From positions 1 through 7,899 of the forward strand of contig QNDV01000089.1 in NCBI GenBank assembly GCA_003646045.1: DNA of 7,899 bases, in the 5' to 3' direction. A program made the position numbers and the translations under genes. The notes under the pieces were generated by a model. That model did no database searches. It saw only the letters and a program-made list of their open reading frames with translations, and was not told the origin of the DNA. Below are positions 1,536 through 7,899 of this stretch, in pieces; the first letter of the stretch is position 1; each line of letters starts with the position of its first letter. Source of the stretch: a bacterium. GTDB taxonomy: Bacteria > Krumholzibacteriota > Krumholzibacteria > LZORAL124-64-63.

Positions 1536-4500
1536 TTAAAGATCTAATGCTGAAGTTATGATAATTTTAATATTAACAGCTTCAGTACAATCAATAGTTA
1601 ATACATTTGCATTAGTTTCAGTAATCAAAACGATATCGTTTTGGAATGTACCACCACCATTTTTAGTCCAAATAGTAACATTCAAGAATGCATTATTTAA
1701 ATTATGTGTAATGGTATGTTGTTGTGCAGCAACAGTAGTTTCTTGAGTATAAGTACGAGCATTATAATCAGAACGAATCAATGTATCAGCAGCAATATAT
1801 GCAGTAGTACTAGTACCAATTGCATCAGCATTAGCTTTAACTTGTGTATCAAGTAATTGATCAGCATTATCTAGATCAGTTGCACCTGACAAATAATTAG
1901 AACCACCTGTAGCAATATATGCACCACCTGTTCCTAGACCAGCACCAGACTGTGTTGCGTCTAATTCAGATTGCATTGTAGAATCAGCATTAGTACGGGC
2001 AGTAGTTTCAGCACCGATTGCATCAGCATTTACTTTAGCTTGAGCATCAAGTAATTGATCAGCATTATCTAAATCAGTTGCACCTGAAATATAATTTGCA
2101 GCACCAGTTGCTAAATATGTACCATTTGCTTGTAGACCAGCACCAGTTTCAATAGCTGTAATGTCAGAGTTTATGGTTACATGATTAGCAACTCTAGCAG
2201 CAGCTTCAGTAACAATTGCATCAGCATTAGTTTTGATTTGATCATCTAACAAACTATCAGCATTTGATAATGATACAGCACCAGATATATAATCAGCACC
2301 GCCATCAGCAACATAAGTACCAGTTACAGATAAACCTGCACCCAGTTGAGTTGCATCCATTTCTGTTTGCAAACCAGTTATATTGGTTTCATTAGTATCT
2401 ATTTGTGCATCTAATAATTGATCAGCATTATCTAAGCTAGTAGCAGAAGATATATAGTTTGCACCACCATTTGCTGTATATGCACCATTAGTACCAAGAC
2501 CAGCGCCAGCTTGTGTTATATCTAACTCACCTTGTAATCCAGTTAATGCACCTTGACCACCAGATTGTGTCCAGGTAACATCATCAGTACCAAGAGTTAC
2601 ATTACCATCAAATAATATAACAAATTCACCACCAGCATTATTTGTACCGATTTCAACATATGTATGCACACCGCCAGAAACTTCAGCAGCTGGTGAACCA
2701 TCCATATCAAGAGCACGAGTTAAGACCCAATTAGTACCAGCAGAACCTTCATCAGTAACAGTATAAATACCATTTTCAACAGGATCGGTTTGATCTTTAA
2801 CTAAGATACGATTACCAACAACGACAGTTTGTCCATCGAATGTAGGAATAACTTCAGTAGAAGAAGATGTTAACGTTGCACCAACGCCAGCAGTACCATT
2901 ATTATAAGCAGTAGCTAGATCGGCAGTTGTAGCAACACGAGTTGATTCTTTAGGATCAAAACCAGCAGCAATACTATCAGCATATGCTTTATTAACTAAA
3001 GCAGATGGTGATGTAGGCGATGTAGTAGTATAGACTTCGTAAACACCCATAGTGATGTTTCCGGTCATAATACCGCCAGCTAATTGCAGTCTGTCATTAA
3101 TATCATCCGTATTCGTTTTAACTTGTGCGTCTAATAAATCATCAGCATCAGTTAAAGAAGTAGCAGTATTGATATAGTTAGCTGAACCATTAGCAACATA
3201 AGCACCAGTTGCAGATAAACCTGCACCAGTTTGTGTTAAATTTAATTCATTTTGAATTAAAGTATCAGCAGCAGCATATGCAGTTGCATTAGCACCAATC
3301 GCATCAGTATTGACTTTGATTTGATCATCTAACAAACTATCAGCATTTGATAATGAAGTAGCAGCAGATATATAATCAGCAGTACCATCAACAACATAGT
3401 TGCCATTAGCAGCTAAACCTGCACCAACTTGTGTATCAGTTAGTTCTGAATTAATTGTAGTATCAGCATTAGTACGTGCAGTTGTTTCAGCACCGATTGC
3501 ATCAGCATTTACTTTAACTTGTGCATCAAGTAATTGATCAGCATTATCTAAATCAGTTGCACCTGATATATAGTTTGCAGCACCAGTTGCAGTATATGTG
3601 CCGCCAGTTCCAAGACCAGCACCAGTTTGTGTTGCATCTAATTCAAGTTGTAATGCATTAGTACCACCACCAACTGTTGTTGCCAAAGCAGCTAAAGCAG
3701 CATCTAATAAGTCATCTGCACTATCTAATGAAGTTGCAGTATCAAGATAGTTAGTACCAGAATTAGTTGTATATGTACCATCATTAGCTAAGCCAGCACC
3801 AGTTTGAGTAGCAGTCAATTCATTATTGATTGCAATATCAGCATTAGTACGTGCAGTAGCTTCAGCAGTAACAGCTAAACCACGATCAGTAACTTCAGTT
3901 GACAAACCATCAGTAACAGTTTTTAATTGACTGTCTAATAAATTATCAGCATTTTGAAAAGTAGTTGCTAAAGCAATATAGTTTGCAGAACCATTAGCAA
4001 CGTAATTACCATTAACATCCAAACCTGCATTTAATTGTGTAGCATCTAATTCAGCTTGAATTGCAGAAGCATCGCCTGTTACAGAATCAGAAACAGCTTT
4101 TAATGCAGCATCTAACAAATCATCAGCATTGTCTAATGAAGTTGCAGTATCAAGATAGTTAGTACCAGTATTAGTTGTATACGTACCATTTGCAGCTAAA
4201 CCAGCTCCAGTTTGAGTAGTATCTAATTCAGTATTAATTAGTGTATCAGCAGCAGCTCTATTAGTAATTTCTGTAGTAACTGCGTCTGCATTTGCTTTAG
4301 CTTGGGTATCTAACAATACATCAGCGTTTTTCAATGAAGTAGCAGTATCTATATAATTTGTTCCAGATATAGAATATGTTCCATCACCGCCTAAACCAGC
4401 ACCAGCTTCAATAGTATCAATTTCAGTTTGGATACCTGCAACAGCACCAGTACCAGAAGATTGAGTCCAATTAATGTCATCAGTACCTAATGCTACAATA

Positions 4501-4601
4501 CCGTCCCATATTAATACGAAACCAGCACCTTCATTAATAGTACCCTGTTCTACATATGTGTTCGCACCACCTGAAACTTCAGCAGCAGGAGTACCATCCA
4601 T
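1536..4601 (-). CDS. Long repeat tail fibre protein, downstream part of a split gene
   Basis: From the ATG at 4601 this gives 1021 residues ending in TAA. The same frame is open up to 4769, where an in-frame TAA separates it from the 243-residue upstream piece; the two were probably one gene of about 1320 codons. The ATG at 4601 sits inside a conserved module (its paralogue reads ALDMDGSPAAEV) and has no clear ribosome binding site, so it is probably not a natural start. Residues 1-57 are the end of module copy 1. Residues 58-510 hold seven repeats with TQ.GAGL, NYI and ADxLLDAQ motifs. Residues 511-688 are module copy 2 (MTGNI, NKAYADSIAAGFDPKES, VLVKDQTDP-like, TWTQ). Residues 689-945 hold four more repeats. 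Residues 950-1021 (YTQETTV, HTITHNLN, then DIVLITE) look like a C-terminal beta domain. No catalytic motif is visible. The likely role is an elongated, probably trimeric, fibre shaft; whether this part is translated depends on the upstream stop. Confidence 0.8.
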   Translation of the reverse strand: MDGTPAAEVSGGANTYVEQGTINEGAGFVLIWDGIVALGTDDINWTQSSGTGAVAGIQTEIDTIEAGAGLGGDGTYSISGTNYIDTATSLKNADVLLDTQAKANADAVTTEITNRAAADTLINTELDTTQTGAGLAANGTYTTNTGTNYLDTATSLDNADDLLDAALKAVSDSVTGDASAIQAELDATQLNAGLDVNGNYVANGSANYIALATTFQNADNLLDSQLKTVTDGLSTEVTDRGLAVTAEATARTNADIAINNELTATQTGAGLANDGTYTTNSGTNYLDTATSLDSADDLLDAALAALATTVGGGTNALQLELDATQTGAGLGTGGTYTATGAANYISGATDLDNADQLLDAQVKVNADAIGAETTARTNADTTINSELTDTQVGAGLAANGNYVVDGTADYISAATSLSNADSLLDDQIKVNTDAIGANATAYAAADTLIQNELNLTQTGAGLSATGAYVANGSANYINTATSLTDADDLLDAQVKTNTDDINDRLQLAGGIMTGNITMGVYEVYTTTSPTSPSALVNKAYADSIAAGFDPKESTRVATTADLATAYNNGTAGVGATLTSSSTEVIPTFDGQTVVVGNRILVKDQTDPVENGIYTVTDEGSAGTNWVLTRALDMDGSPAAEVSGGVHTYVEIGTNNAGGEFVILFDGNVTLGTDDVTWTQSGGQGALTGLQGELDITQAGAGLGTNGAYTANGGANYISSATSLDNADQLLDAQIDTNETNITGLQTEMDATQLGAGLSVTGTYVADGGADYISGAVSLSNADSLLDDQIKTNADAIVTEAAARVANHVTINSDITAIETGAGLQANGTYLATGAANYISGATDLDNADQLLDAQAKVNADAIGAETTARTNADSTMQSELDATQSGAGLGTGGAYIATGGSNYLSGATDLDNADQLLDTQVKANADAIGTSTTAYIAADTLIRSDYNARTYTQETTVAAQQHTITHNLNNAFLNVTIWTKNGGGTFQNDIVLITETNANVLTIDCTEAVNIKIIITSALDL
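1767..2537 (-). repeat. Second fibre repeat block, four GAGL repeats
   Basis: Four protein repeats lie between module copy 2 and the C-terminal domain. Spacing from one GAGL to the next is 55, 66 and 66 residues; 66 residues equals 198 bp, visible in the DNA as near-identical stretches starting near 1855 and 2053. Each unit reads roughly ELDATQ.GAGL, then Y.A.G.NYISGAT, then DNADQLLDAQ, then NADAI. The helical ends may form a coiled coil. Confidence 0.8.
2538..3071 (-). repeat. Fibre module copy 2 (intact paralogue of the interrupted module)
   Basis: About 178 residues run from MTGNITMG through NKAYADSIAAGFDPKES and TRVATTADL, then RILVKDQTDPVENGIYTV, DMDGSPAAEVSGG and TLGTDDVTWTQ. Motifs of the type VLVKDQTDP..NGIY with a later TW are widespread in phage tail and fibre proteins. 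It duplicates the module at 4431-4895, including a 72-bp stretch (2932-3003 against 4759-4830) with only two differences. One of those differences is TCA here against TAA in copy 1. Confidence 0.8.
3072..4430 (-). repeat. First fibre repeat block, seven GAGL repeats
   Basis: Seven repeats have GAGL (once NAGL) spacing of 65, 59, 77, 59, 66 and 66 residues. The second and fourth units are nearly the same (GTYTTN.GTNYLDTATSLD, then DDLLDAAL). The fifth and sixth resemble the tenth and ninth of the gene, in swapped order. The 77-residue spacing comes from an extended helical linker in the third unit (EVTDRGLAVTAEATARTNAD). Confidence 0.8.
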
Positions 4602-4769
4602 ATCAGTAGAGCGGGTCCAAGTACCAGCAACAACATCATATATACCATTTTCAGTGGCATCAGTTTGATTCTTTACAAGAACACGATCACCAGCAATTAA
4701 AACGACACCATCAACAGTCAGTAAACCACCAGTAGCTAAATCGATGTTAGCTGTTGCAGCAACACGAGT
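4602..4769 (-). pseudogene. Open 56-codon stretch between the in-frame stop and the next ATG
   Basis: These 56 codons encode TRVAATANIDLA, VLVKNQTDATENGIYDVV and TWTRSTD, in frame with both flanking pieces and clearly homologous to module copy 2. There is no ATG, GTG or TTG with a ribosome binding site here that could restart translation, so the stretch would be expressed only by readthrough or from a version of the genome lacking the stop. Retained protein similarity suggests the stop is recent, artefactual or tolerated by recoding. Confidence 0.6.
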
Positions 4770-4772
4770 TTA
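4770..4772 (-). other. In-frame TAA splitting the repeat fibre gene
   Basis: The minus strand reads CCT AAA GAG TAA ACT CGT; the paralogous site near 2944 reads CCT AAA GAA TCA ACT CGT. One C-to-A change turns Ser into a stop. TAA also ends the genes at 1536, 5582, 5950 and 6850, so a genome-wide reassigned TAA is unlikely. It could be a real truncation, a readthrough site or a sequencing or assembly error. Confidence 0.8.
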
Positions 4773-5501
4773 CTCTTTAGGATCAAAACCAGCAGCAATA
4801 CTATCAGCATATGCTTTATTAACTAAAGCACCTGCAGTTGAAGGTGATGTAGATGTAAATATTTCATTTGAACCTAACTGGATATCACCAGTCATAGTAC
4901 CACCAACAAGTGGTAATGATGCAGCTACACCATCGGCGTTTGTTTTAGCTTGTGTATCTAATAATACAGTTGCGTTTTCTAAATCAGTTGCACCTGTTAA
5001 ATAGTTAGATCCTGCAGGAGCTGTATATGTACCGTCAGTATTTAGACCAGCACCAGATTGTGTTGCATCTAATTCAGATTGTACATTGCCAGTAGCAGTT
5101 GATGTACTATTTGTTAATGCTAAAATAGCATCAATGCGATCTTGAATTTCTTGGTCAAGTCCTGAAACTAATGAATCCAATGCAACATCAGCAGCAGAAG
5201 CAGCTAATGAGAATTGACCATTTGATCCTGTAGCGCCATCATAGCCTAGTAATGAAGCACCAGTAGAAGAAGAAAGAGAGGATACGTAATTAGCTAAGTC
5301 TTGAGCAGAACCAAAAACATTAATTTCAATCGCACCACCGGCATCTAGACCAGAATATTTAAATTCTTTACTAGTAAGATTGAACCAAATTTGACCAGGA
5401 TATGAAGGAACCGGATCAGAAGATAATGATTCGATTACAGCATTTTGAATTGCTGCGCCGCCTGCAAGTGTAAGGCCGTGGATTTTTAAATAATTTGCCA
5501 T
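4770..5501 (-). CDS. Repeat tail fibre protein, N-terminal part (243 aa)
   Basis: The ATG at 5501 follows a well-spaced AGGA (TATAGGAAACTATAAAATG). Residues 1-65 (MANYLKIHGLTLAGGAAIQN, then PGQIWFNLTSKEFKYSG) form an N-terminal attachment-like domain typical of phage fibre and structural proteins. Residues 75-130 (SSSTGASLLGYDGATGSNGQ, then LDSLVSGLDQEIQDRIDAI) form a linker with a helical end. Residues 141-200 are the first GAGL repeat (QSELDATQSGAGLNTDGTYT, then LLDTQAKTNAD). Residues 203-243 begin module copy 1 and end at TAA after AAGFDPKE. The downstream frame continues the module exactly, so this is probably the head of a fibre of about 1320 residues. As written it would make a short protein with the attachment domain but without shaft and tip. 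It lies 80 bases after the DUF1353-like gene. Confidence 0.85.
   Translation of the reverse strand: MANYLKIHGLTLAGGAAIQNAVIESLSSDPVPSYPGQIWFNLTSKEFKYSGLDAGGAIEINVFGSAQDLANYVSSLSSSTGASLLGYDGATGSNGQFSLAASAADVALDSLVSGLDQEIQDRIDAILALTNSTSTATGNVQSELDATQSGAGLNTDGTYTAPAGSNYLTGATDLENATVLLDTQAKTNADGVAASLPLVGGTMTGDIQLGSNEIFTSTSPSTAGALVNKAYADSIAAGFDPKE
4902..5081 (-). repeat. First GAGL fibre repeat, upstream of the stop
   Basis: A single unit of about 60 residues with QSELDATQSGAGLNTDGTYT, NYLTGATDLENA and LLDTQAKTNAD. It matches the 11 units downstream of the in-frame stop, giving 12 in the reconstructed gene. It supports the view that both pieces are one gene. Confidence 0.8.
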
Positions 5502-5520
5502 TTTATAGTTTCCTATAGTT
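5502..5520 (-). promoter_or_regulatory. Leader and ribosome binding site of the repeat fibre gene
   Basis: The minus strand reads AACTATAGGAAACTATAAA before the ATG, with AGGA nine bases from the start codon and AACTATA occurring twice. An almost identical leader precedes the gene at 6828. It is best explained as a translation initiation region. Confidence 0.55.
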
Positions 5521-5534
5521 TAATAAAAAATTTT

Positions 5535-6828: not shown

Positions 6829-6847
6829 TTTATAGTTTACCTATATT
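6829..6847 (-). promoter_or_regulatory. Leader and ribosome binding site of the DUF4376-like gene
   Basis: TATAGGTAAACTATAAAATG differs from the leader of the repeat fibre gene (TATAGGAAACTATAAAATG) by one inserted base. AGG lies about ten bases before the ATG. The shared leader suggests a conserved initiation element for tail genes of this phage. Confidence 0.5.
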
Positions 6848-6849
6848 AG

Positions 6850-7899
6850 TTATAAATTAGCTTCATAAAGAAAACCAATACCTAATGCAGTTACAGTAGG
6901 AGCAGCATACATTTCATATGTGAATTCTGCTGCTCTAACATTTACATCAGATAGTCTTGCATATCTACGACATATAATTAATTCTTTAGCAATAGAGTTT
7001 CGTTCAAATCCAGATGCAATAGATCCTTCTTCTAGTTTAGCTTCCGAAAGAAATAATTCATTAGTACCATCATTTTTCATACTAATAAGTATCGAAAGTG
7101 ATGTTATAGTATCAGAAATACCAGCAGTAAATTTGATTTGTTTTTCTTCACTAGATACTGAATCAGTTTGTGAATATATAATACCATTAATAACTATAGA
7201 CGTAATTACTTCAGTACTTTTAGTAGAACTAGCAGTAAATGAAAGTGTTAGTGAATTGTCTGTTATTTTTTCTATTTCCTCAATTTTTTGAGATATCGAG
7301 ATACTAGTTTCATTAGAACGAACGTCAAATAATCTTAATCCCTTATTTATAGTTTTATCAGCGTATCCAATAGTACCGGTAAAATTGGCATCAAATTGAA
7401 GAGTATTAGTATTCCATTTGTAGATTTTAGAATCGGCATTATGTGTAGAACCATTATGAAAATTAGCTATTGCTAGATAGTGGTCAGTTTCAATAGTGAA
7501 GAAATGCCAATCAAAAGCACCATTAGTAGCTATAGATTGAAATGAATCAAATTGCAGAGTACCAGTATTCCATTTATAGATTACAGAGTTAAGATTAAGA
7601 GTAGTGCCATTATAGTAATTAGCAATAGCTAGATAGTGATCACCTGAAATAGTAAAGAATTCCCAATCCATAGCACCACTAGTAGCTATAGATTGAAAAA
7701 TATCAAATTGCAGAGTACCAGTATTCCATTTATAGATTACTGAGTTAATATTATAAGTAGAATCATTATAATTATTAGTAACAGCTAGGTAATGATCACT
7801 TCCGATAATAAAGGATTCCCAATCACGTCCCCCATTAGTAGCAATAGATTGATAACTATCAAACTGAAGAGTACCGGTATTCCATTTATAGATTACTGA
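6850..7899 (-). CDS. EPTP/EAR-repeat phage adhesin, 5' end outside window
   Basis: The frame is open from the window edge to TAA at 6850 (349 residues visible); an internal Met at 7671 is inside a repeat and is not the likely start. Residues 1-156 are three 52-residue repeats and 157-170 begin a fourth. Each has SVIYKWNTGTLQFD, then FQSIAT.GA.DWEFFTI and DHYLAIAN. This matches the EPTP/EAR repeat (LGI1, TSPEAR), which forms a seven-bladed beta-propeller. Residues about 187-291 (NKGLRLFDV, SISQKIEEIEK, LTLSFTAS, SEAKLEEGSIASGFE) look like the jelly-roll region common near the end of phage fibres. Residues 305-313 (AKELIICRRY) and 330-337 (YAAPTVTA) are typical fibre C-terminal motifs, but the end is shorter than usual. 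It is probably a receptor-binding protein, with the propeller as a ligand-binding part. The downstream DUF4376-like gene starts 21 bases later. Confidence 0.8.
   Translation of the reverse strand, partial: SVIYKWNTGTLQFDSYQSIATNGGRDWESFIIGSDHYLAVTNNYNDSTYNINSVIYKWNTGTLQFDIFQSIATSGAMDWEFFTISGDHYLAIANYYNGTTLNLNSVIYKWNTGTLQFDSFQSIATNGAFDWHFFTIETDHYLAIANFHNGSTHNADSKIYKWNTNTLQFDANFTGTIGYADKTINKGLRLFDVRSNETSISISQKIEEIEKITDNSLTLSFTASSTKSTEVITSIVINGIIYSQTDSVSSEEKQIKFTAGISDTITSLSILISMKNDGTNELFLSEAKLEEGSIASGFERNSIAKELIICRRYARLSDVNVRAAEFTYEMYAAPTVTALGIGFLYEANL
7390..7899 (-). repeat. Tandem 156-bp repeats encoding EPTP/EAR propeller blades
   Basis: Units lie at 7744-7899, 7588-7743 and 7432-7587, with a partial unit down to about 7390. 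The period is exactly 156 bp (52 codons). The stretch coding for SVIYKWNTGTLQFD is nearly identical in DNA between units, so duplication is recent or homogenised. A complete seven-bladed propeller would need about four more units upstream, outside this window. Confidence 0.85.

What the first reader, a model, noticed from the sequence alone, without database searches (positions are those of the whole stretch)
4770..4772. Single in-frame TAA splits a fibre gene of about 1320 codons at a module boundary
The 243-residue and 1021-residue frames are in the same phase and are joined by 56 open codons with clear homology to an internal paralogue. The paralogue has GAA TCA ACT where this site has GAG TAA ACT, so one base change made the stop. 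TAA is the normal stop of four other genes here, and no restart site with a ribosome binding site follows. Options are a recent truncation that removes shaft and tip and changes host range, readthrough giving a short and a long fibre, or a sequence error. The downstream 1000 codons show no further damage, which argues for a recent event, recoding or an artefact.
Basis: partly seen in the sequence, partly recalled or inferred. Interest (0 to 1): 0.75.

Follow-up and report, generated by a model that had tools for sequence, protein, structure and literature searches.

The report
Private stop in phage fibre gene
A stop codon cuts a long gene of a bacterial virus in two in this one assembled sequence, but an almost identical copy elsewhere reads straight through, so this looks like a one-off mutation or an assembly error and not a new way of reading genes.

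Summary
A TAA at 4770-4772 (minus strand) interrupts one gene: 243 codons, the stop, 56 open codons, then a 1,021-codon frame. A public protein, P0002 (1,321 aa, ENA, contig of 11,902 bases), is near-identical: it has a sense residue at the stop and differs at 2 of the other 1,320 residues. Of 22 fetched viral loci, 7 match the N-terminal piece; in all 7 the interrupted module lies in the same open frame. So the one-gene view holds and the stop is not a conserved device. None of 27 genetic codes checked gives P0002's residue for TAA, so P0002 is not a recoded reading. What remains is a consensus error or a real private nonsense allele. For error: the stop lies one base from the end of the gene's longest exact repeat (57 nt), and another change at a conserved position lies five codons on. 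Against it: differences are also bunched in the neighbouring gene's closest relative. Fibre loss by mutation is known in phages (lambda stf, PMC2762979, passages). Reads would decide; none were available. Interest is low.

The parts
4770..5501 (-). first part of the gene: ATG at 5501, 243 codons and the TAA
   Evidence: identical to residues 1-243 of P0002
4770..4772 (-). in-frame TAA; P0002 has a sense residue here
4602..4769 (-). 56 open codons after the stop, the start of a widespread phage structural module; 1 residue of 56 differs from P0002
1536..4601 (-). 1,021-codon continuation (repetitive shaft and C-terminal part) with the normal TAA at 1536-1538; 1 residue of 1,021 differs from P0002
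4774..4830 (-). copy 1 of the longest exact direct repeat of the gene (57 nt); ends one base before the stop codon
2947..3003 (-). copy 2 of the 57-nt repeat, in front of the intact paralogous module

Best explanation
One phage structural gene, most likely a tail fibre, of 1,321 codons, in which this contig, as far as could be seen, alone carries a nonsense codon. The stop has no function in the gene. Either the assembled consensus is wrong beside a long intragenic repeat (about 0.50), or the sampled phage carries a recent private nonsense allele (about 0.43). If real, translation would end after 243 residues and leave a stub of the N-terminal domain and first helical repeat, without shaft and C-terminal part. 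Shown: single frame, near-identical intact copy, unbroken relatives. Inferred: the choice between error and mutation, and any effect on the virion.
For: P0002 is open through the site and near-identical. P0003 has the same layout in one chain. 7 of 7 viral loci with the N-terminal piece carry the module in the same open frame. No near-identical truncated protein among the best 120 of 156 hits of 134-425 residues. For error: stop one base from the end of the 57-nt repeat, 36 of 1,320 codons being that near an edge of a repeat of 40 nt or more; 2 of 3 differences from P0002 five codons apart, 2.3% by chance; the second at a position that is Thr or Ser in 69 of 74 aligned segments and Ala in 1.
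Against: The repeat-edge and bunching arguments were made after seeing the data. The three differences between the neighbouring 292-aa gene and its relative P0242 are bunched too, in the last 32 residues, so real strain differences may bunch here. The 5 members of P0002's cluster cannot be seen and might include other truncated copies. P0002's DNA could not be reached.
Confidence: 0.93

Rival explanations
1. Within the best explanation, the real-mutation half: a phage lineage that lost most of this fibre, perhaps favoured where weaker adsorption pays or where other fibres suffice.
For: No other damage in the gene. Other fibre-like genes lie beside it. In lambda, 19 of 21 independent mutants selected in soft agar had mutated stf, 15 by frameshift and 4 by missense (PMC2762979, passages).
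Against: Second change at a conserved position five codons on, and the repeat edge. No second copy of the stop seen. The lambda mutants in the passages read are not nonsense mutants.
Confidence: 0.43
2. Programmed readthrough or a reassigned TAA makes a short and a long fibre.
For: The frame is long and intact beyond the stop.
Against: Sense residue in the near-identical copy. In 27 code tables TAA is sense in 8, as Gln, Tyr or Glu, never the residue of P0002. TAA ends other genes here. No tRNA gene in the window; the rest of the genome is not held.
Confidence: 0.02
3. Two separate proteins, the second starting at the ATG at 4601.
For: An in-frame ATG exists, with a start signal no worse than that of two other frames here.
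Against: That ATG lies inside a conserved module. Relatives have one chain.
Confidence: 0.02
4. The intact copy is the artefact: P0002 took the paralogue's letters by misassembly or gene conversion, and the stop is the older state.
For: At both protein differences beside the repeat P0002 agrees with the internal paralogue.
Against: P0002 also agrees with the commonest residue among relatives at both positions, and relatives are unbroken.
Confidence: 0.03

Closest known systems
P0002, 1,321-aa protein on an 11,902-base ENA contig
   Same: Same gene: 1,318 of 1,321 positions identical, open throughout.
   Different: Sense residue at 244; residues 249 and 1283 also differ.
P0003, 1,097-aa protein on a 16,927-base ENA contig
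   Same: Same layout in one chain: N-terminal piece at 1-110 (70% identity), module at 246-299 (64%).
   Different: About 47% identity over 67% of the long piece; no stop.
Proteins named tail fibre in Pelagibacter phage Mosig and Methylophilales phages Melnitz
   Same: 49-50% identity to about residues 534-684 of the 1,021-aa piece, the paralogous module.
   Different: Only 14-15% of the piece is covered.
Lambda stf, side tail fibre loss (PMC2762979, abstract and passages)
   Same: Loss-of-function mutations in a fibre gene that is otherwise kept.
   Different: Unrelated by any test made here; there frameshift and missense mutations under tested selection, here one stop of unproven reality.

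Membership tests
Programmed stop-codon readthrough or reassigned stop | Stop kept in close relatives at the same place | tested here: not met
   P0002 has a sense residue; 7 of 7 informative loci are open
Programmed stop-codon readthrough or reassigned stop | Suppressor tRNA or code change in the genome | not testable with these tools
   No tRNA in the window; no genome held
Programmed stop-codon readthrough or reassigned stop | Codon not used as an ordinary stop | tested here: not met
   TAA ends four other frames of the window, the 1,021 frame included
Private loss-of-function fibre allele (as lambda stf mutants) | Intact allele in a near-identical relative | tested here: met
   P0002
Private loss-of-function fibre allele (as lambda stf mutants) | Allele present in reads or in a cultured phage | not testable with these tools
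   No reads or isolate available
Phage tail fibre | Homology to annotated tail fibres and place among tail genes | tested here: met
   Hits named tail fibre; neighbours match tail families
Phage tail fibre | No better match to another virion protein class | tested here: inconclusive
   The module also occurs in proteins named head or capsid decoration; the 243-aa piece has no PHROGs match
Phage tail fibre | Trimeric fibre in the virion | not tested
   Only a low-confidence monomer model of the 243-aa piece was made

The most novel reading that the evidence does not exclude
The stop is a real polymorphism kept beside the intact allele in one natural phage population, so that virions with and without the long fibre coexist, as was proposed for lambda side tail fibres, but in an uncultured phage.
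Probability: 0.1. Interest if true: 0.4.

Novelty: new member of a known kind. Interest (0 to 1): 0.12.

Why it matters
If the stop is real, it is one more case of a phage losing a long fibre while the rest of the gene is intact, with a near-identical intact copy for comparison. If it is an error, it warns that a single stop beside an intragenic repeat in an assembled fibre gene should not be read as recoding or truncation without the reads.

Tried and rejected
Rejected: readthrough or reassignment and two independent genes.

Led nowhere: an exact 28-base pattern across the site in viral contigs, 0 copies. The 292-aa gene in viral contigs, 7 stretches matched a pattern, no relative confirmed. 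P0002 in genome contigs, 21 stretches, no relative confirmed. Plasmids, no match. Phage records by DNA, 16 records with short pieces covering at most 3%. The 243-aa piece had no family in Pfam, PHROGs or NCBIfam. AlphaFold of that piece on a 21-row alignment gave mean pLDDT 65.7 and pTM 0.31: strands, long helices, the stop after a helix at 223-236. This was too weak for a fold search, so none was run. Papers: four searches on fibre stops, readthrough and assembly errors were seen as listings only, a fifth listing led to the lambda paper. Passages read in PMC8594841, PMC8573959 and PMC6669636 were not about a stop in a fibre gene. No claim is made that such stops are absent from print.

Full report
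What is there. On the minus strand a gene starting at 5501 runs 243 codons to a TAA at 4770-4772. The frame then stays open for 56 codons and continues into a 1,021-codon frame ending at 1536.

Is it one gene? Yes. The search with the 1,021-residue piece gave 746 proteins with E up to 0.001 among 7,995 scored candidates, the best 120 listed. The first is P0002, 1,321 residues, from an 11,902-base contig in ENA. Against the three window pieces taken apart it is identical at 243 of 243, 55 of 56 and 1,020 of 1,021 residues, and it has a sense residue where the window has the stop. The next, P0003, has the same layout in one chain: N-terminal piece at 1-110 (70% identity), module at 246-299. Among 250 proteins held, 61 matched the first 110 residues, 56 of these also matched the 56-residue piece, and all 56 also matched the long piece. 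That figure is biased, because many of these proteins were found with the long piece. The DNA loci are a fairer test. Of 22 loci (19 found with the 243-residue piece; 3 with the long one), 7 matched the first 110 residues, and in all 7 the 56-residue piece lay in the same stop-free frame; 2 more matched the 56-residue piece only and 13 neither. In those 7 loci the module lies farther from the start than in the window, so they show that this kind of gene is unbroken, not that this codon is conserved.

What made the stop? Not recoding: the near-identical copy has a sense residue. In 27 code tables TAA is sense in 8, always as another residue, and TAA ends other frames here. Two readings remain. 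For a consensus error: the longest exact direct repeat of the gene, 57 nt, ends one base before the stop codon, and 36 of 1,320 codons lie within 3 nt of an edge of an exact repeat of 40 nt or more. Two of the three differences from P0002 are five codons apart, which three random differences would do in 2.3% of trials. The second of these hits a position that is Thr or Ser in 69 of 74 aligned segments from 72 proteins; one segment has Ala, as the window has. Against it: these arguments were made after the fact. Also, the neighbouring 292-aa gene and its closest relative P0242 differ at three residues that are bunched as well, in the last 32, so real strain differences may bunch in this phage. 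For a real allele: the gene shows no other damage, and in lambda fibre loss is strongly selected in soft agar, with 19 of 21 mutants in stf, 15 by frameshift and 4 by missense (PMC2762979, abstract and passages). I put error at about 0.50 and a real private allele at about 0.43.

Other truncated copies. A search with the 243-residue piece, which sees proteins of about 134-425 residues, gave 156 hits. The best 120 were listed, the first at 36% identity. The database shows one representative per 90% cluster, and P0002 stands for 5 members that cannot be seen; the window's own two pieces or other truncated copies could be among them.

What the product is. Most likely a tail fibre. Listed hits of the long piece include proteins named tail fibre in Pelagibacter, Methylophilales and Vibrio phages, though the highest-ranked, in Pseudomonas phages, are named hypothetical or structural (52 records, 25 listed). 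Neighbouring genes match PHROGs tail families. The 56-residue piece matches 59 phage records, some named tail fibre and some head or capsid decoration (25 listed), and a PHROGs head-decoration family matches the long piece. One solved chain, 9efk_AE, named only 'orf22', matches 154 residues of the long piece at E 7.8e-22. The 243-residue piece has no convincing solved relative (one hit, E 0.42) and a low-confidence model.

Restart. The ATG at 4601 has a weak Shine-Dalgarno match, but two ordinary frames here do no better. The better argument against a restart is that the ATG lies inside a module that relatives keep whole.

Verdict. A correct observation with an ordinary explanation. The stop is private to this contig as far as could be seen, and reads are needed to tell error from mutation.

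Noticed in passing
6850-7899, minus: A partial frame (open at the window's end) with three EPTP (PF03736) repeats, E 2.1e-43, a repeat family I recall from animal proteins, followed by a tail-fibre-like part (phrog_4492).
   Followed up: partly
5502-5523 and 6829-6850, minus: The leaders of the fibre gene and the 292-aa gene are alike just before the ATG (an ACTATAAA stretch behind a TAGG); a shared promoter or translation signal is possible.
   Followed up: no
1536-4601, minus: The shaft is built of diverged repeats, often spaced 198 nt, in families of 5 to 8 copies. Long relatives include two proteins of Polaribacter filamentus, P0004 and P0015, a hint to flavobacterial hosts.
   Followed up: partly
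992-1466, minus: Two small overlapping frames (75 and 84 aa) between fibre genes, without any Pfam or PHROGs match.
   Followed up: no
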